Positions 1-27,704 of a stretch of 64,000 bases of DNA are shown here, in pieces; position 1 is the stretch's first letter, and each line of letters begins with the position of its first letter. The DNA is from Clavibacter michiganensis (GTDB lineage Bacteria > Actinomycetota > Actinomycetes > Actinomycetales > Microbacteriaceae): the NCBI RefSeq assembly GCF_016907085.1, contig NZ_JAFBBJ010000001.1, positions 2,604,001 through 2,668,000 on the forward strand. The letters are read 5' to 3'. The translations under genes were made by a program, and so were the position numbers. A model generated the notes under the pieces. That model searched no databases, was not told the DNA's origin, and worked only from the letters and a program-made list of their open reading frames with translations.

Positions 1-623
1 GCGACCGGCTCGCCGAGACGGGCATCCCCTCCTACCTGTCGCCCACCGACTGCGACTCCGACATCAGCATCAACGGCGGCGGCCAGCGCACGACCGCGCT
101 CACCGTCGACGCGCTGTACCAGGAGATCCGCGAGATGGCGGAGGTCTTCGACGTGCAGGATCGCGGCGAGGCGCTCGTCGCGTCGCTCCAGCAGCGCGCG
201 GCCGCGGCCACCGACGGCATGGACATGGGCGGCGCGAAGGTCATGTACTGGTTCGCCGACACCAAGACGCCGTACATGGGCGGCGGATTCGGCGCCACGT
301 CGCTCCTGTCGCGCCAGCTCGGTCTCACGGACGCGTTCCCCGAGGTGCGCGACGACTTCATCGCCACCGGGTGGGAGACCGTGGTCGACCGCGACCCGGA
401 CATCCTCGTGCTCGGCGACCTGCAGCGGGACCGGTTCCCGGGCGACAAGCTGCAGGACAAGATCGACTTCCTCGAGTCCGACCCGCTCACGCGCGACCTC
501 ACGGCCGTGAAGGAGGACCGGATGGTGGCGCTGCACGGCGCGGAGATGAACCCGTCGATCCGGTTCGTGGACGGGCTCGAGAAGATCCGGGCCTGGTGGG
601 ACGCGCGCGGGGCGGAGCTCTGA
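1..623 (+). CDS. ABC transporter substrate-binding protein, Fe-siderophore/cobalamin type (5' end outside window)
   Basis: Reading frame 3 is open from the first base to the TGA at 621-623, so only the C-terminal part of the gene is present (about 206 residues). The translation resembles the second lobe of BtuF/FepB-like class III periplasmic binding proteins, ending in the usual pattern of a long helix, a conserved WW and a short acidic tail. The permease and ATPase follow directly, giving the standard binding protein-permease-ATPase order. The signal peptide lies upstream of the window. The ligand cannot be told from this fragment: siderophore, haem, cobalamin and the F420-0 precursor proposed for similar actinobacterial cassettes are all open. 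Confidence 0.85.
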   Translation, partial: DRLAETGIPSYLSPTDCDSDISINGGGQRTTALTVDALYQEIREMAEVFDVQDRGEALVASLQQRAAAATDGMDMGGAKVMYWFADTKTPYMGGGFGATSLLSRQLGLTDAFPEVRDDFIATGWETVVDRDPDILVLGDLQRDRFPGDKLQDKIDFLESDPLTRDLTAVKEDRMVALHGAEMNPSIRFVDGLEKIRAWWDARGAEL

Positions 624-1692
624 GCGCGGCGGTCCCGCGGGCGCCGTTCGGCGCGGTCGCCGCACGGGTGCGCGCCCTCCCGCACGCGCTCCGCGTCGGG
701 CTGCTGGTCGTGCTCGGGATCGTCGCGCTCGCGCTCTCCGTGGGCGTCGCCGTGACCCTCGGGCCGGCCGACGTCTCGCTCGTGAACGTGCGCGACATCC
801 TGCTCAACCACGCCGGGCTCGCGAGCATCCCGGTGCGCGTCTCCGAGGACGCGATCGTCTGGCAGGAGCGCCTCCCGCGCGCGCTCGTCGCGGCGGCGTG
901 CGGCGCGGGACTCGGCCTCTGCGGCGTCGTGCTGCAGTCGCTGCTGCGGAACCCGCTCGCGGATCCGTTCGTGCTCGGCGTCTCGTCCGGTGCCTCCACG
1001 GGCGCCGTGCTCATCGGGGTGCTCGGCCTCGGCGGCGGCGCGATCGGGATGTCCGGCGGCGCCTTCATCGGGGCGCTCGTGGCCTTCGGCTTCGTGCTGC
1101 TGCTCGCCCGGTTCTCGTCGGCGGGCACGGCCGGCGTGATCCTCGCGGGCGTGGCCAGCACGCAGCTCTTCTCCGCGCTCACCTCGCTCGTGGTGTTCGC
1201 GTTCGCCGACTCCGACGAGACGCGCGGCATCACGTTCTGGCTGCTCGGGTCGCTCGAGGGCATGCGCTGGGACGAGGTGGGGCTCAGCGTCTCCGTCGTG
1301 GCGATCGGCGCGGTCGTCTGCCTCGCCTACGCCCGCTCGCTCGACGCCTTCGCGTTCGGGGAGGAGGTGGCGTCGTCGCTCGGGATCCACGTGGGCCGCA
1401 CCCGCACGATCCTCCTGGTGGTCACGGCCCTCCTCACCGCGACGCTCGTGAGCATCGCGGGCGCCATCGGCTTCGTCGGCCTGGTGCTCCCGCACGCCGC
1501 GCGCCTGCTGTTCGGCCAGCGGCACGCGCGTGTCGTGCCCGCCACGATCGTGCTCGGCGCGGTCTTCATGGTGTGGGTGGACGCGTTCTCGCGCCTCGCC
1601 TTCGCACCCACCCCGCTGCCCGTGGGCGTGGGCACGGCGCTCGTGGGCGTGCCCGTCTTCATGCTGCTGCTGATGCGGAACCGGGGACGCGC

Positions 1693-1696
<4 letters not shown>
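596..1696 (+). CDS. FecCD-family ABC importer permease
   Basis: The protein is very hydrophobic with about ten membrane segments. It has the FecCD landmarks: the LRNPLADPFVLGVSSGAS loop, a cytoplasmic LGIHVGRTR segment and the GFVGLVLPHAARLL motif near the C-terminus. It should form the homodimeric channel for the preceding binding protein. The start is uncertain. A GTG at 596 would overlap the upstream gene by 28 bases and give 366 residues, whereas a GTG at 668 gives a shorter N-terminus starting just before the first membrane helix. No Shine-Dalgarno sequence decides between them. The gene overlaps the ATPase by four bases (ATGA), implying translational coupling. Confidence 0.85.
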
Positions 1697-2463
<767 letters not shown>

Positions 2464-2537
2464 GCGGGGCCCCGCCCGTCGCCCAGGATGGGAGGACGGC
2501 CGCGGGACCGCGGCGCTTCGACGACGAGGGGATCCGC

Positions 2538-3338
2538 ATGGCCACGATCACGATCACGGGAGGATCCGGGCGCATCGCCACGAGCATCCGCCCGCTCCTC
2601 CTCGCGGCCGGGCACGAGCTGCGGCTGCTCGACGTGGTGGCGCCGCCGAGGCCGCTCGCGCCGGGGGAGACCTCCGCGATCGTCGACACGACCGACGTCG
2701 ACGCGTGCACCGAGGCGTTCCGCGGATCCGACCTCGTGGTGCACCTCGCGGCGCACGCGGCCGAGCGGTCGTGGGAGGCGATCCAGCGGGTCAACAACGA
2801 CGGCGCGCACGCGGTGCACGAGGCGGTCGTGCGGGCGGGGGTGCCGCGGATCCTCGCCGCCAGCTCCATCCACGCGGTCGGCTTCCTGCCCGCGACCGAG
2901 GCCGCGCGCGAGGACGTGCCCGTGCCCCGCCCCGACACCTTCTACGGCCTCAGCAAGGTGCTGCTCGAGGGGCTCGGCAGCATGTACGCCGACCGGCACG
3001 GGCACGTCGTGGTGAGCGTGCGGATCATGACGGCCGAGCCCGAGCCGTCCGCCGCGCGCAGCATCTCCACCTGGCTGTCCGCGGGCGACGCCGCCCGGCT
3101 CGTGGAGGCGGTGCTGCACCTCGACGAGCCCGGCCACCGCATCGTCTGGGGCGTCTCGCGGAACACGCGCCGCTGGGTCTCGCTCGCCGCGGGCGAGGCG
3201 ATCGGCTACCACCCCGAGGACGACGCCGAGGTCTTCGCGCACCGCTTCCCGGAGCTCGGCGCGGACACGTCGCCGCCCGCGGGCGTGCTGCTCGGGTCGA
3301 TCTTCACGGAGGTGGGGCTGGGCGCCGACATGGGGTGA
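2538..3338 (+). CDS. NAD-dependent epimerase/dehydratase, uronate-dehydrogenase-like
   Basis: This 266-residue protein has an N-terminal Rossmann motif TGGSGRIA and the extended-SDR catalytic pair YGLSK, preceded by an ASSIHAVGF stretch. The order SS-x-H-x-x-G-F/Y, PRPD-x-x-YG-x-SK, PEP, STW, VWG and a C-terminal YHPEDDAE tail matches what I know of uronate dehydrogenase (Udh), which oxidises galacturonate or glucuronate to the aldarolactone. That role would suit a bacterium living on pectin. The family call (extended SDR) is firm; the substrate is inference. The start is the first ATG after the ABC operon. It appears monocistronic. Confidence 0.7.
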   Translation: MATITITGGSGRIATSIRPLLLAAGHELRLLDVVAPPRPLAPGETSAIVDTTDVDACTEAFRGSDLVVHLAAHAAERSWEAIQRVNNDGAHAVHEAVVRAGVPRILAASSIHAVGFLPATEAAREDVPVPRPDTFYGLSKVLLEGLGSMYADRHGHVVVSVRIMTAEPEPSAARSISTWLSAGDAARLVEAVLHLDEPGHRIVWGVSRNTRRWVSLAAGEAIGYHPEDDAEVFAHRFPELGADTSPPAGVLLGSIFTEVGLGADMG

Positions 3339-3391
3339 GGCGGGCGCGCAGCGGCGACCGACGGCGGCGTCGGCCGACGTACGCTGGCTGC

Positions 3392-4666
3392 ATGCGGTCC
3401 TTCCGACGTGCGGGATCCGCACGCACCCCCGAGCCCGGCGACGGCTCGATGCCCGACACCCGTGGCCCCGGCCGCGCACCCCGCGCGAAGCTCCCGCGCG
3501 ACGTCCTCGTCCTCGGCGTCATCGCGTTCTTCGTGATGGTCGGCTTCGGCGTCGTCGTGCCCGTGCTGCCCGTCTACGCCGAGAGCTTCGGGGTCGGCAG
3601 CTTCGAGGTCGGCGCGGTCATCTCGGCGTTCGCGCTCATGCGGTTCGTGATGAGCCCGTTCGTCGCGCGCCTCATCGACTGGAGCGGCGAGCGCACCGTG
3701 CTCGCGGTCGGCATCGGGATCGTCGCCGTCTCCTCCGGGCTCGCGGGCCTCGCGCAGGACTACGTGCAGCTGCTGCTCCTCCGCGGCGCGGGCGGCATCG
3801 GGTCGGCGATGTTCTCGGTGGCCGCGATGACGCTGCTGCTCGGCTCGACGGATCCCACCCGCCGCGCCCGCGCGATCGGCTTCTACCAGGGCGGCTTCCT
3901 CATCGGCGGCATGGCCGGGCCCGCGCTCGGCGCCGTGCTCGCGACCATCTCGCTCACCGCTCCCTTCTTCTTCTACGCGGCCACGCTCGCCGTCGCGAGC
4001 GTCATCGGGCTGCTGCTCCTGCGGCCGCGCACGCGCGACGTCGCCGCGACCGGGACGCCCGAGGTCGTGATCCCGTTCGGGAAGGTGCTGCGCGACCCGC
4101 GGTACCGCGCGGCGCTGCTCGCGAACCTCGGCAACGGGTGGGCGTCGATGGGCGTCCGCAGCGCGCTGATCCCGCTGCTCGTCGTGGCCGTGATCGGCGC
4201 GGATCCCTCGGCCACCGGCATCGCGTTCGCGTGCGCCGCCGTGGTGCAGGCGCTCGCGCTCGCGCCGGCCGCGCGCTTCGTGGACACGCGCGGTCGCCGG
4301 CCCGCGATCGTCGGCGCGTACGGCGTCGCCGGGCTGCTGATGATCGCGATCCCGTTCGCCCCGGACATGGTCGTGCTCACCGTGCTGCTCTGCGTCTACG
4401 GCGCCGCCGCGTCGTTCATGGGCACGGCGCCCGCCGCCGCCGTCGGCGATGCCGCGGGCGCCCGCAGCGGCCGGCCGGTCGCCGTGTTCTCGATGGTGTC
4501 GGACCTCGGCGCCATCGTCGGCCCGCTCGTCGCCGGCTTCCTCGCGGACGCGTTCTCGTACCCGGTCGCCTTCGCGACGGGCGCCGTGCTGCTGCTCGCC
4601 GCCTCCGCGTACGCGCTGCTGCGGATGCCGCGGGACGAGCGCGTGGCGGCGCCCGCCGCGAGCTGA
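3392..4666 (+). CDS. MFS transporter, DHA1-like multidrug/sugar efflux family
   Basis: The 424-residue protein has about 12 membrane helices, with the MFS loop 2-3 signature region RLIDWSGERTV and a second DTRGRRPAIV copy after helix 8, typical of the duplicated six-helix fold. A -10-like TACGCT at 3380-3385 ends six bases before the ATG at 3392, so the mRNA is probably leaderless. An in-frame ATG at 3449 is a possible alternative and would drop a 19-residue hydrophilic extension. The substrate is unknown. The upstream uronate-dehydrogenase-like gene is in the same direction, but the separate promoter argues against a shared operon. Confidence 0.8.
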   Translation: MRSFRRAGSARTPEPGDGSMPDTRGPGRAPRAKLPRDVLVLGVIAFFVMVGFGVVVPVLPVYAESFGVGSFEVGAVISAFALMRFVMSPFVARLIDWSGERTVLAVGIGIVAVSSGLAGLAQDYVQLLLLRGAGGIGSAMFSVAAMTLLLGSTDPTRRARAIGFYQGGFLIGGMAGPALGAVLATISLTAPFFFYAATLAVASVIGLLLLRPRTRDVAATGTPEVVIPFGKVLRDPRYRAALLANLGNGWASMGVRSALIPLLVVAVIGADPSATGIAFACAAVVQALALAPAARFVDTRGRRPAIVGAYGVAGLLMIAIPFAPDMVVLTVLLCVYGAAASFMGTAPAAAVGDAAGARSGRPVAVFSMVSDLGAIVGPLVAGFLADAFSYPVAFATGAVLLLAASAYALLRMPRDERVAAPAAS

Positions 4667-4770
4667 TCCGGTCGCCCGGTGCGCCCTCCACAGCAGGATC
4701 CGCGGCCGGAGGGTCCGTCCTCGGACGTCATGCGCAGGATCCGCCGCGCGCTGTCCGTATCCTCGACACC

Positions 4771-7503
4771 GTGACGACTCCCCCGAAGAAGCCGCTTCCC
4801 CTCGAGCACGACTCCACCCGCGACGGCACGCGCGACGCCGTCGAGCCGGCGCTCCGCTCCGACGTCAGCCACCTCGGCGGCCTGCTCGGCCAGGTGCTCC
4901 GCGAGTCCGGCGGGGAGGATCTGCTGCGCGACGTCGAGCGGCTGCGCGAGCTCGTGATCGACGCGTACGAGAGCGCGCGCGACGCCTCCATCGACGACGC
5001 CGAGCGCCTCGTCGCCACGTTCACGCCCGAGCGCGCCGAGCAGGTCGCCCGCGCGTTCACCTGCTACTTCCACCTCGCGAACCTCGCCGAGGAGCACCAC
5101 CGCGTGCGCGTCCTCCGCGAGCGCGAGGCGGCGTCGGGCTTCGTCCCCGACTCCATCCCGGACGCCGTCGGGAAGCTCACCGAGGAGCTGGGCCGCGAGG
5201 AGGCCATGCACCGCCTCGGCGAGATGCGGTTCCACCCGGTGCTCACGGCGCACCCCACCGAGGCGCGCCGGCGGGCGGTGGCCACGGGGATCCGCCGCAT
5301 CGGCGACCTGCTCACGGAGCGCGACGGCGCCATGGCGGGCACGCTCACCGGGCAGGACATCGACCGCCGGCTGCTCGAGGAGATCGACGGCCTGTGGCGC
5401 ACGTCGCCGCTGCGCACCACGCGGCCCACCCCGCTCGACGAGGTCCGCACCGCCATGGGCGTCTTCGACCAGACCTTGTTCGAGGTCGTGCCGCGCGTCT
5501 ACCGCCTGCTCGACGACTGGCTGCTCGGCGAGGAGGCCGGCGTGCGCGACGCGGTCGCGCCCGCCTTCTTCCGGCTCGGCAACTGGATCGCGGCGGATCG
5601 CGACGGCAACCCGTACGTCACCGCCGCGGTCACGGAGGAGGCCGCGGGCATCGCCAGCGAGCACATCCTGCTGGGCCTCGAGCGCGTCGCCCTCCGCGTC
5701 GGCCGCTCGCTCACGCTCGGCGACGCCGACACCCCGCCGAGCGCCGAGCTCCGCGAGCTCGCCGCCGCGCAGGACGCGCTCGCGCCGCACCTCACCGCCC
5801 GCATCGGCACGCGCGCGCCCGCCGAGCTGCACCGCCGCGTGCTGCTCGTCATCGCCGGCCGCCTCGCCGCCACGCGCGAGCGCCACGACGACCCCATCGC
5901 CTACCCGTCGGCCGCCGAGCTGCTCGCCGACCTCCGCGTGCTGCAGGCGTCGCTCCGGAGCGCGGGCGCGCACCGCATCGCGGGCGGCGAGCTGCAGGGC
6001 CTCGTCTGGCAGGCCGAGACCTTCGGCTTCCACCTCGCCGAGATGGAGGTGCGCCAGCACTCGCAGGTGCACCGCGAGGCGCTCCGCGAGGTCCTCGCCG
6101 TCGCCGCGGCGGACGCGTCCGGCGACCAGGCGCCCGAGCTCGCGCCCATGACGGTCGAGGTGCTCGACGTGTTCCGCACGCTCGCCCGCCTGCAGGAGCG
6201 GCACGGCGTCGCGCCGTTCTCCCGCTTCATCGTCTCGTTCACCCAGTCGGCCGACGACATCCGCACGGTGCACGAGCTGGCCGCGCTCGCGCTCGGGTCG
6301 GCGGAGGAGGCGCCCGTCCTCGACGTCATCCCGCTCTTCGAGACGTTCGCGGATCTCGACGCGAGCACGGAGATCCTCGACGGCATGATCCGGCTGCCCC
6401 AGGTGGCGGCGCGCCTCGCGCAGACGGGCCGCAAGCTCGAGGTCATGCTCGGCTACTCCGACTCGTCGAAGGACGTCGGGCCGGTCTCCGCGACGTTCGC
6501 GCTGTTCGACGCGCAGGCGCGCATCGCCGCGTGGGCGCGCGAGAACGACATCGAGCTCACGCTCTTCCACGGCCGCGGCGGCGCGCTCGGCCGCGGCGGC
6601 GGGCCTGCCGACCGCGCCGTGCGGGCCCAGCCGCCGGGATCCGTCGACGGCCGCTTCAAGCTCACCGAGCAGGGCGAGGTGATCTTCGCCCACTACGGCG
6701 ACAAGCGCATCGCCGCCCGCCACATCGAGCAGATGGCCGCCGCGACCCTGCTCGCCTCTGCGCCCTCCAACGAGGAGCGCAACGCGGTGGCCGCACAGGG
6801 GTCCGCCGAGATGGTGCGCACGATGGACGAGGCCTCGCGCGCCCGCTTCTTCGAGCTCGTGAAGGCGCCCGGCTTCGCGCCGTGGTTCGCGCAGGTCACG
6901 CCGATGGAGGAGATCGGGCTGCTGGCGCTCGGCTCGCGGCCGGCCCGCCGCGGCCTGTCGGTCGAGTCGCTCGAGGACCTGCGGGCGATCCCGTGGGTGT
7001 TCGCGTGGACGCAGGCGCGCATCAACCTCACGGGCTGGTTCGGGCTGGGGTCGGCGCTCGCCGCCGTCGGCGACGAGGCCGTGCTCCGCAAGGCGTACGA
7101 CGAGTGGCCGCTGTTCACGTCGATGATCGACAACGTCGAGATGTCGCTCGCCAAGACCGACGGCCGCCTCGCGGAGCGCTACCTCGCGCTCGGCGACCGG
7201 CCGGATCTCGCGGCGCTCGTCACCGAGGAGATGGAGCTCACGCGCGAGTGGGTGCGGAAGGCCACGGGCCGCGGCGAGATCCTCGAGGGCCGGCCGGTGC
7301 TGCGCCGCGCGGTGCGCCTCCGCAGCCCGTACGTCGACGCGCTCTCGCTGCTCCAGCTGCGGGCCCTCCGCGCGCTGCGCACGGCGGCCTCCGACGCGAC
7401 CGGCCAGGGCGCTCCCGGCCAGGCCGACCCCACGGATCCCGACCACCGGCTCCTGCTCCTCACGGTCAACGGCATCGCGGCGGGGCTGCAGAACACGGGC
7501 TGA
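4771..7503 (+). CDS. ppc: Phosphoenolpyruvate carboxylase
   Basis: This enzyme carboxylates phosphoenolpyruvate with bicarbonate to oxaloacetate, replenishing the TCA cycle. The 910-residue length is normal. Catalytic features are present: the TAHPTE motif with His161, GYSDSSKD around 561-568, FHGRGGALGRGGGP with His600, and a C-terminal NGIAAGLQNTG tail. The GTG start is chosen because a consensus-like -10 (TATCCT, 4758-4763) ends seven bases upstream and no Shine-Dalgarno sequence is visible, so the mRNA is likely leaderless. The last part of the gene and its terminator recur in decayed form at about 12861-13055. A huge open frame on the opposite strand is a codon-bias shadow. Confidence 0.97.
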   Translation: MTTPPKKPLPLEHDSTRDGTRDAVEPALRSDVSHLGGLLGQVLRESGGEDLLRDVERLRELVIDAYESARDASIDDAERLVATFTPERAEQVARAFTCYFHLANLAEEHHRVRVLREREAASGFVPDSIPDAVGKLTEELGREEAMHRLGEMRFHPVLTAHPTEARRRAVATGIRRIGDLLTERDGAMAGTLTGQDIDRRLLEEIDGLWRTSPLRTTRPTPLDEVRTAMGVFDQTLFEVVPRVYRLLDDWLLGEEAGVRDAVAPAFFRLGNWIAADRDGNPYVTAAVTEEAAGIASEHILLGLERVALRVGRSLTLGDADTPPSAELRELAAAQDALAPHLTARIGTRAPAELHRRVLLVIAGRLAATRERHDDPIAYPSAAELLADLRVLQASLRSAGAHRIAGGELQGLVWQAETFGFHLAEMEVRQHSQVHREALREVLAVAAADASGDQAPELAPMTVEVLDVFRTLARLQERHGVAPFSRFIVSFTQSADDIRTVHELAALALGSAEEAPVLDVIPLFETFADLDASTEILDGMIRLPQVAARLAQTGRKLEVMLGYSDSSKDVGPVSATFALFDAQARIAAWARENDIELTLFHGRGGALGRGGGPADRAVRAQPPGSVDGRFKLTEQGEVIFAHYGDKRIAARHIEQMAAATLLASAPSNEERNAVAAQGSAEMVRTMDEASRARFFELVKAPGFAPWFAQVTPMEEIGLLALGSRPARRGLSVESLEDLRAIPWVFAWTQARINLTGWFGLGSALAAVGDEAVLRKAYDEWPLFTSMIDNVEMSLAKTDGRLAERYLALGDRPDLAALVTEEMELTREWVRKATGRGEILEGRPVLRRAVRLRSPYVDALSLLQLRALRALRTAASDATGQGAPGQADPTDPDHRLLLLTVNGIAAGLQNTG

Positions 7504-7513
7504 TCCGCGCCCT

Positions 7514-7557
7514 GGGAACACGGCGGCGGCCGGCCTCGAGTGTGCCGACCGCCGCCG
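7514..7557 (+). terminator. Probable terminator hairpin after ppc
   Basis: A 12-base arm beginning GGCGGCGGCCGG pairs with CCGACCGCCGCC across an 11-base loop with one mismatch, starting a few bases after the ppc stop. There is no T run, as is common for GC-rich actinobacterial terminators. A diverged copy of this hairpin follows the ppc remnant near 13021-13055. Confidence 0.65.
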
Positions 7558-7701
7558 TTCCGTGCGAGGGGATGACGAGCTCAGAAGGGCGGTACAGGCC
7601 GGAGGACGGTGGGAGTCGAGGAGCTCACCGCCGCAGCGGGCGGTGAGCTCGTCGCTGTGGTCTTCGTCGGGTCGACGGGCGGGTGCTGGCGGAGGCCGGC
7701 G

Positions 7702-8271
7702 TCAGCCCCCCGCGGTCCAGGCCGCGGCGATGCTGCGGTCGACGACCCGACGCCATCCGTCCGGCGCGGTGGGGTCGTGGCTGGCCATCCCGGCCATCCA
7801 CAGCACGCTCATGAGGTCATCCGGTGTGAAGTCGGGCGAGAGCACGCCGGCGTCGTGGGCGTTGTCGACGAGCTCCGCCCCGAGCGCCATGGATCGTTCG
7901 CACGCGTTGATGAGGAGCACCGCGTCGGGATAGCGGCGGAGCATCGCGTCGTTCATGGCGGGATCGCTGCGCTGCAGATCGATCATCTCGGCGATGAAGG
8001 TCTCCAGCTGCGCGCGCGGGGAGTCCTCGGCCAAGGTCCGGTCCCGGAGCGTCGCGAGCTTCGCGCCGGCGATGTCCGGCACGACGGCGTCGATGAGCTG
8101 GTCCCGCGAGCCGATGCGGTTGTAGAGCGTCCCGATGCTCACGCCGGCTTCTCGGGCGATGTCCTCCAGCGGAGCGGACAGCCCTCGTGCGGTGAACACC
8201 GCCATGGCGGCCGCGCGCAGCTTCTCGACGTTCGCCTGAGCGTCTCGGCGCAGGCCGGGGGCAGGACTCAT
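7702..8271 (-). CDS. TetR-family regulator (copy 1 of a paralogous TetR/SDR pair)
   Basis: The 189-residue protein has an N-terminal TetR helix-turn-helix (PLEDIAREAGVSIGTLYNR) and a divergent C-terminal ligand domain. The ATG at 8271 is preferred over longer in-frame starts because the upstream extension would run through the operator region and a GGAGCC lies at suitable spacing. It is divergent from an SDR gene, and two TTGAGG-type palindromes lie between them, suggesting autoregulation plus control of the SDR. It is a clear paralogue of the regulator at 27025-27594: identical length, alignable without gaps, roughly 60 percent identical by eye. Its codons are less GC-extreme than those of copy 2, hinting at transfer. 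Confidence 0.9.
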   Translation of the reverse strand: MSPAPGLRRDAQANVEKLRAAAMAVFTARGLSAPLEDIAREAGVSIGTLYNRIGSRDQLIDAVVPDIAGAKLATLRDRTLAEDSPRAQLETFIAEMIDLQRSDPAMNDAMLRRYPDAVLLINACERSMALGAELVDNAHDAGVLSPDFTPDDLMSVLWMAGMASHDPTAPDGWRRVVDRSIAAAWTAGG

Positions 8272-8288
8272 GCTGGCTCCACTTGATC

Positions 8289-8337
8289 TTGAGGGCATCC
8301 TCAACATAGGCTCGGGCGCACTTGAGGACCTACTCAA
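8289..8337. promoter_or_regulatory. Paired TetR operators between divergent TetR and SDR genes
   Basis: TTGAGGGCATCCTCAA at 8289-8304 is a perfect palindrome with 6-base arms around 4 bases. TTGAGGACCTACTCAA at 8322-8337 is the same element with one mismatched arm position. The centres are 33 bases apart. The paralogous locus at 27609-27659 has the same pair. Binding by the adjacent TetR protein is inferred from position and conservation. Confidence 0.8.
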
Positions 8338-8389
8338 CTTATCGCATCAGGACACGTGGCTCGGCAGCGCGCCACGGGAAGGACGCATC

Positions 8390-9055
8390 ATGCCCCTCAT
8401 CACCATCATCGGAGCGGGGCCGGGACTCGGCCTCGAGATCGCGCGCGCGTTCGGGCGGAAGGGCTTCGACGTCGCCCTCGTGGCGCGTGACCGGTCGAAG
8501 CTGGACGGCTTGGAGCGCACGCTCGGTGCCGATGGCATCACCGCTCGGGGCTTCACGGCCGACGTCACCCGGCCCGACACGATCAGGGAAGCGCTCCGCT
8601 CGATCCGCGACGAGCTCGGTCCGATCGACGTGCTCGAGTTCTCCCCGGCGGATCGCGCTCTGGAGTCGGTCGACGCGCTGGACGTGACGATGGAGAACCT
8701 GCAGCCGCAGATCGACTTCTACCTGGGCGGTGCCGTGGCGGCGATCGGCGCCGTGCTGCCGGACATGATCGCCGCGGGTTCCGGCACGGTCATCGTGACC
8801 ACGGGCGGTGGCTCGCTCGCGCCCACGCCGGCCCGCGGCAACATCAACATCGCCGCGGCGGGACTGCGGAACTGGACGCTGAACCTCCACGCCGCCCTCG
8901 CGGAGCGCGGGGTCCACGTGGCGTTCGTCGCCATCACCGCGCTGATCGGCGGCGGCCGCCCGGATGCCGAGCCGGACGTCATCGCGCAGGCGTACGTCAC
9001 GCTCCACGACGAGCGACGGGACGCCGAGCTGCACTACGTCGCCTACGACGCCTGA
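8390..9055 (+). CDS. Short-chain dehydrogenase/reductase-like protein (copy 1)
   Basis: This 221-residue protein has a Rossmann-type N-terminus (IIGAGPGLGLEIARAFG) and SDR-like layout, but the usual catalytic YxxxK is not where it should be: the region after TTGGGS reads NINIAAAGLRNW. It may bind NAD(P) without being a classical SDR oxidoreductase. The ATG at 8390 follows GGAAGGA at good spacing; a longer frame starting at 8270 would cover the operators and is rejected. The protein is the same length as, and closely similar to, the product of 27705-28370. It is divergent from its presumed TetR regulator. The physiological substrate is unknown. Confidence 0.8.
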   Translation: MPLITIIGAGPGLGLEIARAFGRKGFDVALVARDRSKLDGLERTLGADGITARGFTADVTRPDTIREALRSIRDELGPIDVLEFSPADRALESVDALDVTMENLQPQIDFYLGGAVAAIGAVLPDMIAAGSGTVIVTTGGGSLAPTPARGNINIAAAGLRNWTLNLHAALAERGVHVAFVAITALIGGGRPDAEPDVIAQAYVTLHDERRDAELHYVAYDA

Positions 9056-9062
9056 CGCATCT

Positions 9063-9090
9063 CCCGCCCGGGCTCCGCGGCTCGGGCGGG
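9063..9090. terminator. Hairpin between convergent SDR and TetR genes
   Basis: Arms CCCGCCCGGGC and GCTCGGGCGGG pair at ten of eleven positions around a 6-base loop. The element lies in the 72-base gap between convergent genes, so it can serve both strands. There is no T tract. Confidence 0.6.
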
Positions 9091-9127
9091 TCGGCGTGCG
9101 GCTCCCGGGCCCTGGTGACCGCGCCGT

Positions 9128-9760
9128 CTAGTCGGACGAGGCCGGGGCCGCGGTAGCGGTGGCGGCCGCGGCGGCGAACGCGCGGAGCGTCGCGACCTGC
9201 TGGGCGGTGCTCGGCGGCGCGTCGGCCATCTGCCAGGTCGACACGAGCGCGACCATCCCGCCGATCGCGAAGGTCCGTGCGTCATCGCTGAGGGCGATGC
9301 CCGGTCGGGCGTCGTCGTGATGCGACTCCATCAACCAGGTGCTCACCACCGCCGCGATGACCTCGGCGACCCGCTCGCCGCGCGGGATGGCGCGGAGCTT
9401 GTCGAAGAACTCGCGATCCGCTCGCCCGGCGGCCAGCAGCGGTTCGACCCCGTGCTCCCGGACGGCGTCGGTGAGCGCCTGCGCGAGGTTCGCCGCGCCG
9501 TCGGCGGCGGTTGGGCATTCCTGGAGGAGCCGGCTGATCCAGGCATCCGTCGCGAGGTCGCCGACGTTGTCGTAGTGGTTGTGCAGCGCCTGCCGGCTGA
9601 AGCCCGCGCGCTGCGCCACCGCGCTCATCGAGATCGCCTCGCCCTTCGGCGCCTCGGACACCAGCGCTGTGAGCGCCTGGATCAGGGCGGAGCGGGTGCG
9701 GACGACCCGCGGGTCGACCCGGGACGCGCCGTCCGGTACCGCGCCACTCCGCTCCGTCAT
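9128..9760 (-). CDS. TetR-family regulator
   Basis: The 210-residue protein has a TetR-type helix-turn-helix near residues 40-65 (ISMSAVAQRAGFSRQALHNHY) and an Ala-rich C-terminus. It is transcribed away from the ABC-2-like membrane protein at 9830 with 69 bases between them, so that gene and possibly the amidohydrolase behind it are the likely targets. A CAAGAT hexamer at 9767-9772 ends six bases before the ATG, so the message may be leaderless. It is not a close relative of the two paired TetR proteins in this window. The ligand is unknown. Confidence 0.88.
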   Translation of the reverse strand: MTERSGAVPDGASRVDPRVVRTRSALIQALTALVSEAPKGEAISMSAVAQRAGFSRQALHNHYDNVGDLATDAWISRLLQECPTAADGAANLAQALTDAVREHGVEPLLAAGRADREFFDKLRAIPRGERVAEVIAAVVSTWLMESHHDDARPGIALSDDARTFAIGGMVALVSTWQMADAPPSTAQQVATLRAFAAAAATATAAPASSD

Positions 9761-9829
9761 GCATCCATCTTGTCAGAGGCCCCGACCTTGTGTACGGTCG
9801 TCATCTATTGGACAACTGTAAAGGACATG

Positions 9830-11029
9830 ATGACCCACGTGACCGAGACGGCACATCACCGCGGAGACTCCCCGCAGCACCCCGACTTCGAGGCGGCGGT
9901 CGCGGGGGGCGCGCTGACGTCGGAGGGGCCGGGGTCCATCCATCGCTACCGGAACCTGATCCTCGGCGGGGTCGCGATCCTGCTCCTCGCCATGGCGATG
10001 CTGGTCAGCTACTCGACCGCGTTCGGCGACCCGACGCCGAACCACATCCACCTCGCGGTGACCGGCGACGCCGACACGATCGTCGCGCTCGAGCAGCAGG
10101 GGTCGCTGGAGCTCACCGTCGTGTCCTCCGCCGAGGAGGCCCAGGCCGCCGTGCTCGACCGTGACGTGGACGGCGCTGTCGTCCTGCCCGCGCCGGGTAC
10201 CGGCGGCCAGGTCTCCACCTACATCGCCAGCGGCGGAGGCCGCGCCGTCGCGCAGGCAGTATCCGGCATCGGCGCCTCGATCGCGGCGAAGGCGCAGTCC
10301 ACGAACCAGACCATCGACCTCGCCCCTCTGCCGGAGGACGACCCGGTCGGATCGATCGAGTTCTACGCGATCCTCTTCGCGGGGCTGGGCGCGGCGCTCG
10401 GCGCGACGGTGTTCGGACGCATCCTCGGCACGGTCGACACGGCGCCGAAGTTCGTCGAGCGCAGCGTCGTCCTCGTCATCTACTCCGGCCTGCTCGCCGG
10501 CCTGATCACGCTCTGGATCGACTCCGCGCTGGATGCCGTGACCGTCGGCCCATGGGGCGTGTTCGGGGTCCTCTGGCTGACGGGTGTCGCGATTGGAGGG
10601 GCGGTGACGGGAGTCGCGGCCCTCGGCGGCACCATCGCCGCGCTGGCGATGACGCTCGCCCTGGTGATCTTGGGCAACACGTCCTCCGGTGGGCCGCTCG
10701 GGATCCACGTCCTCAACGACTTCTTCCAGACCCTCTACTACGTCTTCCCCCAGGGCGACGCGCTCGACCTCCTGCGGTCGGTCCAGTACTTCGACGGCGC
10801 GGCCGTGACCGCTCCGATCATCCGACTGGGGATCTGGGCGGTCGCGGGCATCCTGCTGACCCTGACGGCCATGCTCATCCGCACCCGTCGGGAAGCCGCG
10901 GCCCGCGCGACGGAGGCACGGCCTCCGGGGTCGGGGACCCGCGGGGCGGCCGGGCCCTCGCCCGCCCACGCCCCGCACGCCGCCGTCACCACCAGCTCGG
11001 AATTCCTTCCGCTCACGCCGTCACCCTGA
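9830..11029 (+). CDS. ABC-2-like/YhgE-Pip-type integral membrane protein
   Basis: About 399 residues. One membrane helix (about 40-60) is followed by a roughly 115-residue extracytoplasmic domain, then five or six C-terminal helices with a short FFQTLYYVFPQGDAL loop. This N-helix, outer domain, C-terminal bundle layout is that of ABC-2 permease-like and YhgE/Pip-like proteins, often drug-response or export related. No ATPase is encoded nearby. The ATG at 9830 sits four bases after AAAGGA; the ATG at 9827 is too close to it. The C-terminal 50 residues are Pro/Ala/Gly-rich and probably cytoplasmic. It lies in the segment bounded by ppc 3' copies and is probably controlled by the divergent TetR. 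Confidence 0.7.
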   Translation: MTHVTETAHHRGDSPQHPDFEAAVAGGALTSEGPGSIHRYRNLILGGVAILLLAMAMLVSYSTAFGDPTPNHIHLAVTGDADTIVALEQQGSLELTVVSSAEEAQAAVLDRDVDGAVVLPAPGTGGQVSTYIASGGGRAVAQAVSGIGASIAAKAQSTNQTIDLAPLPEDDPVGSIEFYAILFAGLGAALGATVFGRILGTVDTAPKFVERSVVLVIYSGLLAGLITLWIDSALDAVTVGPWGVFGVLWLTGVAIGGAVTGVAALGGTIAALAMTLALVILGNTSSGGPLGIHVLNDFFQTLYYVFPQGDALDLLRSVQYFDGAAVTAPIIRLGIWAVAGILLTLTAMLIRTRREAAARATEARPPGSGTRGAAGPSPAHAPHAAVTTSSEFLPLTPSP

Positions 11030-11134
11030 CCGCGACGCGATCAGCAGCACTGCTCCACCTGACCGGCGGCCATCACGCCCACGCCCCGCACGACGCGCAC
11101 GTGACATCCACCAACGCAATCGGAGGTTCTTGAC

Positions 11135-12184
11135 ATGCCAGGAAAGATCGACGTCCACCAGCACCTGCTCCCGCCCATCTACTTCGAGGCGCTGAAGGCG
11201 GCAGGAGAACGGGCGATGGGGAGCGGGGCCGGGTCGGCCGGGGGTGCCCCGGCCGTGTCGGGCGGATCCGCGCAGTGGAATCCGTGGGCGGCGAACGGCG
11301 ACACGGGACCGCGACAGGGTCCGCGCACGATCGGCGGCTGGCAGATGCCGGAATGGGACCCCGAGGCAGCCATCGCGATGATGGACGAGGCCGGCATCGA
11401 GACCGGGATCCTGTCGATGAGCGCACCCGGTGTCCACTTCGGTGACGATGCCGCAGCCCGCGCGCTCGCGCGCGAGCTGAACGACTACCAGGCCGAGCTG
11501 GTCCGATCACGGCCGGACCGGTTCGGGCACTTCGCCGTGCTGCCGCTGCCGGACTTCGACGGCGCGGTCGCCGAGGCCGTCCGGGCGCTCGACGACCTCC
11601 ACGCCGACGGTGTGCTCCTGCTGTCGAACGCGAACGGGCGCTACCTCGGCGATCCCGCGTACGAGCCGCTGTGGGTGGAGCTCGCCGCACGCTCGGCCGT
11701 GGTCTTCGTGCACCCCACGTCGCCGCCGATCGCGCAGCTGCCGGGGATGCCGACGGCGCTGCTGGACTTCCCGTTCGACACCACGCGCACCGCCGTGGAC
11801 CTCGTCGCCCACGGCGTGTTCGACCGGCACCCGGACCTGCGCGTGATCCTCTCGCACGCGGGCGGGTTCCTGCCCTACGCCGCCAGCCGCTTCAGCGCCG
11901 CCGCCATGTTCAACCCCGGCACCACCCCGGAGAGCATCCAGGCGGGACTGCGCAAATTCTACTTCGACACCGCGTTGTCCGCGTCGCCCACGTCCCTGCC
12001 GTCGCTCCTCGCGTTCGCGGAGCCGGGTCACATCCTCTACGGAAGCGACTTCCCCTATGCCGACCCGGAATGGAGCGCGCGCTTCGACCACGAGCTGGAC
12101 ATCTATGACGGCCCTGGGGCGGAGCGGCTGGGTGAGGTGGACCGCTCCGCCGCCGAGGCACTGTTCCCCCGCTTGGCGAGGTAG
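11135..12184 (+). CDS. Amidohydrolase-family (ACMSD-like) metal-dependent enzyme
   Basis: The 349-residue protein has the amidohydrolase 2 pattern: N-terminal metal-binding DVHQH (His8 and His10), a mid-protein HPTSPP, the SHAGGFLPY motif and the late YGSDFPY with the catalytic aspartate. This subfamily includes 2-amino-3-carboxymuconate semialdehyde decarboxylase and hydroxybenzoate/resorcylate decarboxylases, so decarboxylation or hydrolysis of a small aromatic or heterocyclic acid is plausible, but the substrate is not deducible. An insertion of about 40 residues rich in Gly and Ala follows the HxH region. GGAGG lies eight bases before the ATG. The gene follows the membrane protein by 105 bases. 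Confidence 0.82.
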   Translation: MPGKIDVHQHLLPPIYFEALKAAGERAMGSGAGSAGGAPAVSGGSAQWNPWAANGDTGPRQGPRTIGGWQMPEWDPEAAIAMMDEAGIETGILSMSAPGVHFGDDAAARALARELNDYQAELVRSRPDRFGHFAVLPLPDFDGAVAEAVRALDDLHADGVLLLSNANGRYLGDPAYEPLWVELAARSAVVFVHPTSPPIAQLPGMPTALLDFPFDTTRTAVDLVAHGVFDRHPDLRVILSHAGGFLPYAASRFSAAAMFNPGTTPESIQAGLRKFYFDTALSASPTSLPSLLAFAEPGHILYGSDFPYADPEWSARFDHELDIYDGPGAERLGEVDRSAAEALFPRLAR

Positions 12185-12434
12185 GGCGGAAGCCCCCGCT
12201 CCGGATCGCAGGCGCAGCGATGATCGCGCGATAGGCGGCACGAGTTCACGTGACGGTCGGATGAGCCCCTGAAGCGCCTCAGCCGGACTGGCTACGTCAC
12301 GGGATGTCGGCTCAGACTCCACCGCGCGAGACGTGACGCGGGTCCGACCCGCTGCTCTCCGGGAGCGGCGCATCCATCGCCGCCGCTCTACGGCGCCGCC
12401 TTCACGTAGCTGAAGACGGCGCCGTGGGGCGTGC
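12185..12434. other. Intergenic region between amidohydrolase and small secreted protein genes
   Basis: These 250 bases carry no convincing reading frame. The only structure I see is the strong hairpin at 12390-12425 at its right end. Base composition is somewhat less GC-rich than the housekeeping genes on either side. Confidence 0.5.
12390..12425. terminator. Strong bidirectional terminator hairpin
   Basis: ACGGCGCCG (12390-12398) pairs perfectly with CGGCGCCGT (12417-12425), and inside it CTTCA pairs with TGAAG around a 6-base loop. It separates the convergent amidohydrolase and small secreted protein genes. Confidence 0.75.
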
Positions 12435-12659
12435 CTAGTTGTCGGGTCCGCAGTGGACGCTCGGGGGCCACTCGAAGGTCGGGGTCCCGGAGTAGCACGG
12501 GTCGGGACGGACCTGAGGGTAGTGGTGCCGGACGCCGTCGGTCTCGAGTCCGCGGGTCGAGGCCTGCGCGGACATGGGAGTGAGGACCATGGCCGCGCTC
12601 ATGGCGCCGAGGAGGAGGAGGGCTCGTGTCGCCGTGACGCGGGATATGCGATCTGTCAT
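12435..12659 (-). CDS. Small secreted two-cysteine protein
   Basis: The 74-residue product has a basic N-terminus, a hydrophobic core and an AQA-S cleavage site near residue 33, so it should be exported by Sec. The mature part is about 41 residues with two cysteines (C55, C70) likely to form one disulfide, and it ends PPSVHCGPDN. Its signal peptide aligns well with that of the small protein at 54371-54652 (shared pattern RI-x-R-x-T, RA-x-L, GA, VL-x-P, AQA), and both end in a PP-x-x-HC motif, so I regard them as paralogues. The ATG at 12659 is chosen because a longer start adds a charged extension that would spoil the signal peptide. Function unknown. Confidence 0.7.
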   Translation of the reverse strand: MTDRISRVTATRALLLLGAMSAAMVLTPMSAQASTRGLETDGVRHHYPQVRPDPCYSGTPTFEWPPSVHCGPDN

Positions 12660-12850
12660 GTGTGTCCCGTTCTGTTCTGCGCGCTGAATGCTCTGAGGCG
12701 AGTCGCGCGTTCCTCGCCGAGAGCGCCGGAGCCGGCGCCGCACACGGTAGGACCATGCGCAGGGGACACGAGTGGGCTGTCCACATCACGCGTAGTCGGC
12801 TGGGCGTGGGACGCGACGTGCAGGCCGTCTCGAGTCGACGCTCGCTGGCT

Positions 12851-12870
12851 GCAGCTGCAGCTGCAGCTGC
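12851..12870. repeat. CTGCAG microsatellite
   Basis: GCAGCT is repeated in tandem (three and a half units counting the flanking bases) at the left edge of the ppc remnant. In ppc the corresponding place reads CTGCTCCAGCTGC, so slippage expansion during decay of the copy is a simple explanation. Confidence 0.7.
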
Positions 12871-13055
12871 GGGCGCGGCGCACGCCGGCTTCCGACGCGG
12901 CAGGCCAGGCCGCGCCCGGCCAGGCCGACCCGACGGATCCGGACCACCGGCTCCTGCTCTCACGGTCGACGGCATCGCGGCGTGGCTGTAGAACACGAGG
13001 TGATCCGCGCTCGTACGAACGCGGCGGCGGCCAGTCCCTCGCGGGGCCGGCCGCC
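12861..13055 (+). pseudogene. Decayed duplicate of the ppc 3' end and its terminator
   Basis: By eye this stretch aligns with about 7351-7560, the last 50 codons or so of ppc plus the downstream hairpin. Shared blocks include CGGCCAGGCCGACC, GACCACCGGCTCCTGCTC, ACGGCATCGCGGCG and TGATCCGCGC. Before a one-base deletion (after about 12960) it still encodes GQADPTDPDHRLLL. After it, the restored frame reads LTVDGIAA and stops at a TAG (12988) where ppc has CAG. Part of the region upstream of the block is replaced by a CTGCAG microrepeat. The GGCGGCGGCC hairpin that follows is a diverged copy of the ppc terminator and could still end transcription of the convergent gene. Confidence 0.85.
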
Positions 13056-13082
13056 GTCGTGCGTCGGGGAACGGGGCGCGCC

Positions 13083-14192
13083 CTATGCCGCCCCGACCTC
13101 CCGGCGGATCGCCGCCGCGAAGCGGTCGATGTCGTCCTCGGTGGTGTCGAACGAGCACATCCAGCGCACCTCGCGGCGGGCCGGGTCCCAGTCGTAGAAG
13201 CGGAACTCGGAGCGGAGGCGGTCGGCGACGCCCTCGGGGAGGATCGCGAAGAGGCCGTTCGCCTGCGTCTCCTGCGTGAACTCGACGCCGTCGACGCCGT
13301 CGAGCGCCGAGCGGAGTCGCGCGGCCATGCCGTTCGCGTGGCGCGCGGAGCGGAGGTAGAGCGGCACGCCGTCGACCTCGGATCCGAGGAGCGCCAGCAG
13401 CTGCGCGCTCACGAACCGCATCTTCGAGGCGAGCTGCATGTTGAGCTTGCGCAAGTAGGTGAGCCCCTCGGACGCCTCGGGGTCGAGCACCACGATCGCC
13501 TCGCCGTAGAGCAGGCCGTTCTTGGTGCCGCCGAAGCTGACGACGTCGACGCCGGCGTCGGACGTGAAGGCGCGGAAGGGCGCGTCCAGCGTGGCGGCCG
13601 CGTTCGAGAGGCGGGCGCCGTCCATGTGCAGGCGCATGCCGCGCTCGTGCGCGTGGTCGGCGATCGCCCGCACCTCGGCCGGCGTGTAGACGGTGCCGAG
13701 CTCGGTGGTCTGCGTGATGCTCACGGCGAGCGGCTGTGCGCGGTGCTCGTCGCCCCAGCCCCACGCCTCGCGGTCGATCAGCTCGGGGGTGAGCTTGCCG
13801 TCCTCGGTGGGCACCTGGAGGAGCTTGATGCCGGCGACTCGCTCGGGCGCGCCGCCCTCGTCGGTGTTGATGTGCGCGGTGGTCGCGCAGACCACGGCGC
13901 CCCAGCGCGGCAGCATCGAGAGGAGCCCGGTGACGTTCGCGCCCGTGCCGTTGAAGACGGGGAACGCCTCGGCGCCGCGGCCGAAGTGCTCGCCCACGAC
14001 CTCCTGGAGCCGTGCCGTGTACGCGTCGCCGCCGTAGGCGACCTGGTGCCCGCCGTTCGCGGCCGCGATGGCCTCGAGCACCTCGGGGTGGATCCCGGAG
14101 TAGTTGTCGGAGGCGAAGCCGCGGGCGGCGGTGTCGTGGAGGCGGAGGGGGGAGACGGGGGAGGCGTCGGTGGCGTCGGTCACGGGATCCAT
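13083..14192 (-). CDS. Low-specificity L-threonine aldolase
   Basis: This PLP enzyme of the beta-eliminating lyase/threonine aldolase family cleaves L-threonine or allo-threonine to glycine and acetaldehyde. Landmarks in the 369-residue protein: FASDNYSGIHPEVLEAI near the start, NGTGANVTGL, TAHINTDEGGAPE, HMDGARLSNAAA (Asp191) and the PLP lysine in FGGTKNGLLYGEA (Lys224). Length and motif order are normal. It is convergent with the ppc remnant. The ATG at 14192 was taken; a GTG three codons downstream is an alternative. Confidence 0.9.
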   Translation of the reverse strand: MDPVTDATDASPVSPLRLHDTAARGFASDNYSGIHPEVLEAIAAANGGHQVAYGGDAYTARLQEVVGEHFGRGAEAFPVFNGTGANVTGLLSMLPRWGAVVCATTAHINTDEGGAPERVAGIKLLQVPTEDGKLTPELIDREAWGWGDEHRAQPLAVSITQTTELGTVYTPAEVRAIADHAHERGMRLHMDGARLSNAAATLDAPFRAFTSDAGVDVVSFGGTKNGLLYGEAIVVLDPEASEGLTYLRKLNMQLASKMRFVSAQLLALLGSEVDGVPLYLRSARHANGMAARLRSALDGVDGVEFTQETQANGLFAILPEGVADRLRSEFRFYDWDPARREVRWMCSFDTTEDDIDRFAAAIRREVGAA

Positions 14193-14220
14193 CCTCGCCT
14201 ACCGGCGGGTGCGGCCCGGC

Positions 14221-27024: not shown

Positions 27025-27594
27025 TCACGCGGGCGCCCGCCACGCGGCGGCCAGGCTCCGGTCGATGACCCGTCTCCAGGCGTCCGGCGCCGCCGCGTCC
27101 CGGCTGGCGGTGCCGGCCAGCCAGATGATCGCCATGAGGTCGTCGTCGGTGAAGTCGTCCGACAGGGACCCGTCGTCGTGCGCCTCCTCGACGAGCCGAC
27201 GCCCGAGCGCGAGGGAGCGATCGCAGGTGCTGATGAGCGCGGCGGCCTCGGGGAAGCGGCGGAGCATCGCGTCGTTGAGGGCGGGGTCCTCGAGCTGCAG
27301 GTCGACCATGCCGTGCACGAAGCGTTCGAGGCGTGCGCGCGGGGTGGGCTGCGCGTCGACGGACGCCTTGAGGGCCAGCAGCTTCTCGCCCGCGATGGTC
27401 GGGATCACCGCGTCGATGAGCGCCTCGCGGGAGCCGACGCGGTTGTAGAGCGTGCCGATGCTGACGCCCGCCGCCCGCGCGATGTCCTCCAGCGGCGCGC
27501 CGAGGCCGCGCGCGGTGAACGTCGTTAGGGCCGCCGCGTGCAGCTTCTCGACGTTGGCGCGCGCGTCGCGCCGCATGCTCCGCTGTTCGGTCAT
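27025..27594 (-). CDS. TetR-family regulator (copy 2 of a paralogous TetR/SDR pair)
   Basis: This 189-residue TetR protein aligns end to end with the one at 7702-8271, with near-identical recognition helix (GVSIGTLYNR). It is divergent from the second SDR copy and has the same two TTGAGG-type palindromes in the spacer. GGGAGCC before the ATG is a fair ribosome site. Codon use is more GC-extreme than in copy 1, as for surrounding genes, suggesting this is the resident copy. The effector is unknown. Confidence 0.9.
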   Translation of the reverse strand: MTEQRSMRRDARANVEKLHAAALTTFTARGLGAPLEDIARAAGVSIGTLYNRVGSREALIDAVIPTIAGEKLLALKASVDAQPTPRARLERFVHGMVDLQLEDPALNDAMLRRFPEAAALISTCDRSLALGRRLVEEAHDDGSLSDDFTDDDLMAIIWLAGTASRDAAAPDAWRRVIDRSLAAAWRAPA

Positions 27595-27608
27595 CGGGCT
27601 CCCTTAAG

Positions 27609-27659
27609 TTGAGGAATGCCTCAAGTCATGCGTACACTCGCACCTGAGGTCACCCTCAA
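27609..27659. promoter_or_regulatory. Paired TetR operators, second locus
   Basis: TTGAGGAATGCCTCAA at 27609-27624 is a perfect palindrome. CTGAGGTCACCCTCAA at 27644-27659 differs by one arm base. The centres are 35 bases apart, against 33 at the first locus. The shared consensus TTGAGG-N4-CCTCAA at both loci supports binding by the paralogous TetR proteins and possible cross-talk. Confidence 0.8.
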
Positions 27660-27704
27660 CTTACCGCTCACGCCGGCTGCGGCCGGCCAGGACGAAGGAT
27701 CCCC

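What the first reader, a model, noticed from the sequence alone, without database searches (positions are those of the whole stretch)
7351..13055. Decayed second copy of the ppc 3' end bounds a 5.3 kb accessory segment
The last stretch of ppc with its terminator hairpin recurs at about 12861-13055 in the same orientation. The distal copy has a one-base deletion, a CAG to TAG change and a CTGCAG expansion. Between the copies lie two TetR genes, an SDR, an ABC-2-like protein, an amidohydrolase and a tiny secreted protein, all with less GC-extreme codons. This is what is expected if incoming DNA brought its own ppc 3' end, completed the gene and displaced the old tail, either as an integrative element using a protein-gene 3' end as target or by homology-assisted uptake. 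No integrase is visible, which favours the latter or loss.
Basis: partly seen in the sequence, partly recalled or inferred. Interest (0 to 1): 0.78.

Follow-up and report, generated by a model that had tools for sequence, protein, structure and literature searches.

The report
Clavibacter gene-swapping site beside ppc
A worn-out second copy of the end of a core metabolic gene marks where a five-gene block was once spliced in beside it, at a spot where related plant bacteria carry many different extra genes, so it is a clear but not unprecedented trace of gene exchange without a visible inserting enzyme.

Summary
Confirmed: ppc's last ~180 bp plus terminator recur at 12820-13068 (82% identical, far above chance), decayed, with a 5.2-kb block of lower third-position GC between. 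Across the window's genome and 17 other Clavibacter genomes, the space between convergent ppc and ltaA is a hotspot: empty (77-93 bp) in 4 of 18, holding 0.87-43.4 kb of mostly different DNA in 14 of 18. The distal tail, its terminator and its 80-bp spacing to ltaA match the empty sites, so the right-hand tail looks like the displaced native junction. The block also sits at ppc in two other genomes and far from ppc in a fourth. None of the 18 gaps holds a tyrosine integrase, and block junctions differ between genomes. One relative shows the mirror image at ltaA, a 246-bp displaced copy beside a restriction-modification pair. Both flanking genes give trees that conflict with rpoB+gyrB, though rpoB alone does too. 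Best reading: an old, integrase-free, homology-assisted insertion at a recombination hotspot. Whether tail 1 arrived with the block, or both tails stem from an old self-duplication, is undecided. A new member of a known kind.

The parts
4810..7503 (+). ppc, phosphoenolpyruvate carboxylase, complete (897 aa)
   Evidence: Pfam PEPcase E 1.6e-231; found in 18 of 18 Clavibacter genomes at 97-99% aa in the 17 others
7322..7503 (+). tail 1: last part of ppc that recurs downstream (reading frame intact)
7504..7575 (+). terminator-like hairpin 1, after ppc
   Evidence: folds at -41.6 kcal/mol, z -2.4
7621..7650 (.). perfect inverted repeat, probably the terminator of the first TetR gene (inference)
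   Evidence: read in the sequence
7696..12800 (.). portable block: the part shared with G009 at its other place (G012 shares 7677-12772)
7702..8337 (-). TetR-family regulator 1 (true start may be further in)
   Evidence: Pfam TetR_N E 1.2e-9
8390..9055 (+). short-chain dehydrogenase/reductase
   Evidence: Pfam adh_short E 1.9e-22
9128..9760 (-). TetR-like regulator 2
   Evidence: no Pfam hit; weak NCBIfam hit E 2.7e-4
9827..11029 (+). membrane protein, ABC-2/YhgE-Pip-like permease (start inferred; open frame from 9317)
   Evidence: Pfam ABC2_membrane_3 E 6.5e-6, below cut-off; TIGR03062 E 2.5e-4, below cut-off
11135..12184 (+). amidohydrolase (Amidohydro_2)
   Evidence: Pfam E 8.2e-35; 86-88% aa relatives in 6 of the other genomes of a 249-genome family sample
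12435..12743 (-). small open frame, predicted secreted protein (likely start 12659)
   Evidence: no family; also in G009
12820..13003 (+). tail 2: decayed copy of the ppc 3' end (one-base deletion, in-frame-type TAG, CTGCAG expansion)
13004..13082 (.). terminator-like hairpin 2, shared side with ltaA; native junction
   Evidence: folds on both strands, z -2.6 (+) and -2.4 (-); matches the empty-site spacer of G009 at 81% over 93 aligned positions
13083..14192 (-). ltaA, L-threonine aldolase-like gene, right flank
   Evidence: Pfam Beta_elim_lyase E 4.9e-47; present beside ppc in 18 of 18 Clavibacter genomes

Best explanation
The gap between the convergent core genes ppc and ltaA is an integrase-free exchange hotspot of Clavibacter. 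In an ancestor of the window's strain, DNA carrying the TetR-SDR-TetR-permease-amidohydrolase block together with a ppc 3' end and terminator recombined with the chromosomal ppc 3' end (one crossover in the shared ppc sequence, as in Campbell-type or one-sided homologous integration). This left ppc complete with tail 1 and terminator 1, put the block behind it, and displaced the old tail and terminator (tail 2) to the ltaA side, where the coding part decays while the hairpin still ends ltaA. Shown: the duplication, its decay, the empty sites, the native-like right junction, the portable block, the lack of a tyrosine integrase, the differing junctions, tree conflict in both flanks. Inferred: the single crossover, that tail 1 came with the block, the direction of transfer, and the terminator function.
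For: Empty sites with one tail then ltaA in 4 of 18 genomes and in named locus L026. Tail 2 to ltaA 80 bp, empty sites 77, 78, 79, 93. Gap contents 0.87-43.4 kb in 14 of 18. Block also in G010 and G012 at ppc and in G009 about 75 kb away, whose ppc-ltaA gap is empty. Block ends differ: left 7677 (G012) or 7696 (G009); right 12772, 12800, or ~90 bp further. No PF00589 match in any of the 18 gaps. Mirror case at ltaA in G013: a 246-bp displaced ltaA end whose outer flank runs on into the G001-type flank, while intact ltaA has the G002/G017-type flank. ppc 5' part, ppc 3' part and ltaA each reject the rpoB+gyrB tree (AU 0.002, 0.003, 0.0005) and each other. Tails differ as alleles: 10 of 17 differences are at bases seen in other genomes (P 8e-5; 0.005 if only G/C replacements are allowed).
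Against: Tail 2 is not clearly closer to any one relative, and its decay-corrected 91.0% to its own tail 1 against 94.0% to G005 rests on 134 columns. An old self-duplication is not excluded. rpoB alone also rejects the rpoB+gyrB tree (AU 0.0014), so tree conflict is not special to the flanks; the AU runs carried a warning of too few replicates and covered 17 of 18 genomes, G001 left out. Only 4 of 14 occupied gaps show a displaced end. Serine-recombinase remnants in four gaps leave room for an enzyme at some stage. Two neighbouring gaps also vary, by up to 3.3 kb.
Confidence: 0.6

Rival explanations
1. Insertion with long target duplication: the ppc 3' end was copied from the host's own gene when the block went in, so both tails are native and differ only by age.
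For: Same anatomy is reported for restriction-modification inserts (PMC1643837, PMC3031569, passages); G013's displaced ltaA end is closest to its own ltaA (96.7% against 92.7-94.7% for 16 others) and lies beside a BsuBI/PstI-type pair. Relics in G005 and G010 allow an old event shared by a clade.
Against: In the window the tails differ at sites that are polymorphic in the genus, and tail 2 is no closer to its own tail 1 than to several other species.
Confidence: 0.22
2. A site-specific integrative element using the ppc 3' end as attachment site (like e14 in icd), which later lost its integrase.
For: Gene completed by a new 3' end and the old end displaced, as described for e14 (PMC6379469 passages); the hit site is a gene end; recombinase remnants lie next to ppc in relatives.
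Against: No PF00589 match in any of 18 gaps; the remnants are of a small serine recombinase, absent from the window's own genome at E<=0.001; junctions of the same block differ between genomes; the mirror event uses ltaA instead.
Confidence: 0.14
3. Sequence chance or assembly error rather than a real repeat.
For: GC-rich DNA gives spurious short repeats (one search lists many).
Against: Score 142 against a maximum of 47 in 979 random pairs; copies differ at 18%, so not a collapsed or duplicated assembly; the block is at the same place in G010 and in named contig L024.
Confidence: 0.01

Closest known systems
Horizontal-transfer hotspots lacking mobile elements, with recombination in flanking core genes (Oliveira et al. 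2017, PMC5635113; passages read)
   Same: Same two core genes flank different accessory content in many genomes, no integrase, tree conflict in the flanks.
   Different: Here displaced 3' ends of the flanking genes survive as footprints of single arrivals; no species-wide hotspot statistics were run.
Insertion with long target duplication (Nobusato et al. 2000, not read; seen through passages in PMC1643837 and PMC3031569)
   Same: Insert relative to an empty site, flanked by a long direct repeat of the target; in G013 the insert carries restriction-modification genes.
   Different: The window's block has no restriction-modification genes, and its two target copies look like different alleles.
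e14 prophage in icd (PMC6379469, passages read)
   Same: Insert supplies a new gene 3' end and displaces the old one as a pseudo-end.
   Different: No integrase, no phage genes found, variable junctions.
Known Clavibacter genomic islands, such as the chp/tomA island (PMC4059874 and PMC7692107, passages read)
   Same: Accessory islands of lower GC in the same genus.
   Different: Neither paper's main text holds the words ppc, phosphoenolpyruvate carboxylase or threonine aldolase.

Membership tests
Integrase-free transfer hotspot | Same core gene pair flanks different accessory content in many genomes | tested here: met
   14 of 18 gaps occupied, 4 of 18 empty
Integrase-free transfer hotspot | No mobile element or mobility gene in the interval | tested here: inconclusive
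   No tyrosine integrase in any gap; none of 40 of 78 picked gap ORFs matched an integrase or transposase family, one matched Resolvase; transposases were not searched for over whole gaps
Integrase-free transfer hotspot | Raised recombination in flanking core genes | tested here: inconclusive
   ppc and ltaA reject the rpoB+gyrB tree, but so does rpoB; likelihood loss per informative site 0.25 (ppc 5'), 0.50 (ppc 3'), 0.82 (ltaA), 0.31 (rpoB),
Integrase-free transfer hotspot | Statistical excess of transferred genes over the genome's other intervals | not tested
   Only seven neighbouring gene pairs were compared, in 6-14 of 18 genomes; largest gap 3.3 kb
Insertion with long target duplication | Insert absent from an empty-site relative and flanked by a long direct target repeat | tested here: met
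Insertion with long target duplication | Both repeat copies derive from the same target | tested here: inconclusive
   for the window; closest to own copy in G013
Insertion with long target duplication | Often carries restriction-modification genes | tested here: not met
   Not in the window's block; met in G013
Site-specific integrative element at a gene 3' end | Integrase gene in the element | tested here: not met
   remnants of a small serine recombinase in relatives only
Site-specific integrative element at a gene 3' end | Constant junctions / attachment core | tested here: not met
   Block ends differ among G000, G009, G010, G012; later erosion could blur this
Site-specific integrative element at a gene 3' end | New gene end supplied, old end displaced | tested here: met
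   Anatomy; that tail 1 is new is inferred

The most novel reading that the evidence does not exclude
In Clavibacter the 3' ends of two convergent core genes act as standing recombination handles: each arrival swaps in a new gene end plus terminator on one side and pushes the old end inward, so both core genes keep an end and a terminator while the space between them is refilled, from either side, without any dedicated integrase. The displaced ends are then a dated record of arrivals.
Probability: 0.25. Interest if true: 0.55.

Novelty: new member of a known kind. Interest (0 to 1): 0.42.

Why it matters
Hotspots without integrases are common but their arrival events rarely leave a readable mark. 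Here displaced core-gene ends survive on both sides of one hotspot (ppc side in the window, G005 and G010; ltaA side in G013), which gives polarity (which junction is native) and relative age, and so makes the homology-assisted model testable by comparing strains.

Tried and rejected
A plasmid source for the block: 22 of 72,556 plasmid records match, none over more than 14% of it, at 60-80% identity. That the extra right end of the block in G010 and G009 is itself an eroded ppc tail: no better than shuffles (15 of 150 and 32 of 150 shuffles reached the score). A tyrosine integrase at the site: none. An older ppc-ltaA neighbourhood outside the genus: ltaA found in 0 of 74 non-Clavibacter ppc loci as held, some of them short. 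A ppc relic in the 43.4-kb gap of G001: none (the short matches there look like chance). Papers: searches on ppc as an attachment site returned no paper, and searches on Clavibacter hotspots returned listings in which I saw no report of this locus; only passages of six papers were read. Not done: whole-genome statistics of gaps, transposase search over whole gaps, a search of viral collections, structure prediction.

In one search one helper query (ppc end) was translated in the wrong frame; it was used only to confirm placement and nothing rests on it. The AU tests dropped G001 (17 of 18 genomes).
Full report
Observation. The repeat is real. 7322-7571 aligns with 12820-13068 at score 142, against at most 47 in 979 random pairs of window segments, and the own genome holds no third copy. 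Between the copies lie a TetR gene, an SDR, a second TetR-like gene, a weakly ABC-2/YhgE-like membrane protein, an amidohydrolase and a small secreted-looking open frame, with third-position GC 0.82-0.91 for the genes measured against 0.98 in ppc and ltaA.

Where it is. The best named relatives of ppc are Clavibacter. The window lies in a 3.32-Mb one-contig genome, here G000, and 17 other genomes of the genus were compared.

The gap in relatives. ppc and ltaA are convergent neighbours in 18 of 18 genomes. The gap is 77-93 bp in four (G004, G008, G009, G014). In the other 14 it is 0.87 kb (G005), 0.90 (G015), 1.5 (G017), 1.7 (G016), 2.1 (G006), 3.2 (G011), 3.7 (G002), 5.5 (G003), 5.6 (G000), 7.5 (G012), 8.1 (G013), 10.1 (G007), 12.7 (G010) and 43.4 kb (G001). 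Contents differ, though modules recur: the 5.2-kb block in G000, G010 and G012; an HTH_3-regulator module in G003, G005, G010, G015 and G016; remnants of the 3' end of a small serine-recombinase gene in G002, G006, G007 and G013, and only its downstream flank in G011 and G012. Forty of 78 heuristically picked gap ORFs of G001-G017 were scanned with Pfam (only the first 18 kb of G001 entered that list; the block's own homologues were left out); they include a BsuBI/PstI-type restriction pair (G013), an Abi_2 protein (G011), an ABC ATPase (G003), a SpoIIE-type phosphatase (G006) and GH43 enzymes (G001). As a local control, seven neighbouring gene pairs downstream, each measured in 6-14 of 18 genomes, reach at most 3.3 kb; two of them also vary by more than 1 kb in several genomes, so the neighbourhood is not quiet. 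ltaA was found beside ppc in 0 of 74 non-Clavibacter loci as held.

Polarity. Tail 2 ends 80 bp before ltaA, as single tails do in the empty sites (77, 78, 79, 93), and hairpin 2 matches the empty-site spacers (best 81% over 93 aligned positions with G009). The right-hand copy therefore looks like the native junction. Both hairpins still fold, hairpin 2 on both strands (z -2.4 to -2.6), weaker than the empty-site hairpin of G008 (z -4.6 and -3.8). That hairpin 2 still serves ltaA is inferred.

The block is portable. In G009, whose ppc-ltaA gap is empty, 91% identical block DNA (seg 121-5225) lies about 75 kb from ppc. G009's copy is more diverged from the window (8.5%) than its core genes are (rpoB 1.7%, gyrB 3.5%, ppc 4.5%), while the copies at ppc in G010 and G012 diverge about as ppc does (4.0% and 5.3% against 4.2% and 5.0%). 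So the ppc-site copies fit old residence or exchange together with ppc, and the G009 copy a separate history. In a sample of 249 family genomes 78 have some amidohydrolase match and six others one of 86-88% identity; in wider loci from five of those six, all five block genes are present, contiguous in three and with the amidohydrolase 2-3 kb apart in two, and neither ppc nor ltaA is there.

Junctions. G010 shares the window's left junction, but its block runs about 90 bp further right and then meets the ppc stop codon and a terminator copy, while the window's block meets ppc sequence at least 165 bp before the stop. G012 and G009 have other ends again. A shared longer duplication eroded differently in G000 and G010 would explain this; two separate insertions would too. 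G005 keeps an 81-bp ppc piece directly against ltaA. A displaced end of a flanking gene was thus found in 4 of 14 occupied gaps: G000, G005, G010 and, at ltaA, G013.

The mirror case. G013 has a 246-bp copy of the ltaA 3' end, 96.7% identical to its own ltaA (92.7-94.7% to the other genomes compared), with the restriction pair between copy and gene. The copy's outer flank continues 18 bp into the G001-type flank and by eye resembles that of its sister G012; the intact gene's flank is of the G002/G017 type (84% over 150 bp with G002). That is the same layout, old end displaced and new flank at the gene, seen from the other side.

Tails as alleles. Of 19 base differences between tails in 141 columns, two are changes peculiar or nearly so to tail 1. 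Of the other 17, ten carry a base in tail 2 that other genomes also have, where random decay predicts 16% (P 8e-5), or 26% if only G/C replacements are allowed (P 0.005). Without the seven columns of pure decay, tail 2 is 91.0% identical to its own tail 1, 94.0% to G005 and 93.2% to G006, G010 and G017. The tails are thus as different as ends from different species. This fits an incoming end; it also fits an old duplication after which tail 1 evolved or was replaced.

Mechanism. No PF00589 match lies in any of the 18 gaps. The ppc 5' part, the ppc 3' part and ltaA each reject the rpoB+gyrB tree and each other's trees, so both flanks, and ppc internally, have recombined. Against over-reading: rpoB alone rejects that tree too. 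The likelihood loss per informative site is highest next to the gap (ltaA 0.82, ppc 3' 0.50, rpoB 0.31, ppc 5' 0.25). I favour homology-assisted integration at the ppc end followed by exchange through the flanks (0.6), over target self-duplication (0.22) and a lost integrase (0.14).

What is known. Oliveira et al. 2017 describe hotspots that lack mobile elements and have recombining flanking core genes (PMC5635113, passages). Insertion with long target duplication was described for restriction-modification genes (cited in PMC1643837 and PMC3031569, passages; the 2000 paper itself not read). e14 in icd is the integrase-driven analogue (PMC6379469, passages). Two Clavibacter genome papers do not mention ppc or threonine aldolase in their main text, and the searches showed no report of this locus.

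Noticed in passing
L104:1217-1627 (G002) and the gaps of G006, G007, G013; flank only in G011, G012: 3'-end remnants of one small serine-recombinase gene directly after the ppc stop or terminator, cut at different points; intact-looking relatives lie elsewhere, for example in G007, G009, G014 and G017.
   Followed up: partly
L115:2873-3118 and 5827-8651 (G013): Displaced ltaA 3' end flanking a BsuBI/PstI-type restriction-modification pair, the mirror image of the window's arrangement.
   Followed up: yes
window 27040-28366: A second TetR+SDR pair, 74% identical to the block's TetR-SDR part; G006 has a similar one about 17 kb downstream of ppc.
   Followed up: no
L107:1421-2038 (G005) and G003, G010, G015, G016: An HTH_3 regulator module (0.3-0.65 kb, 87-92% identical) recurs in five gaps in different surroundings.
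   Followed up: partly
gap between ltaA and the nudix gene (window 14193-14220): About 1.4 kb in five relatives and 3.3 kb in G007 instead of some 30-100 bp, a second variable spot.
   Followed up: no
window 7504-7575 and 13004-13082; L112:1206-1280 and 6593-6675: By eye, the first half of the window's terminator 1 resembles G010's relic terminator and the reverse holds for terminator 2 and G010's first terminator; not tested.
   Followed up: no
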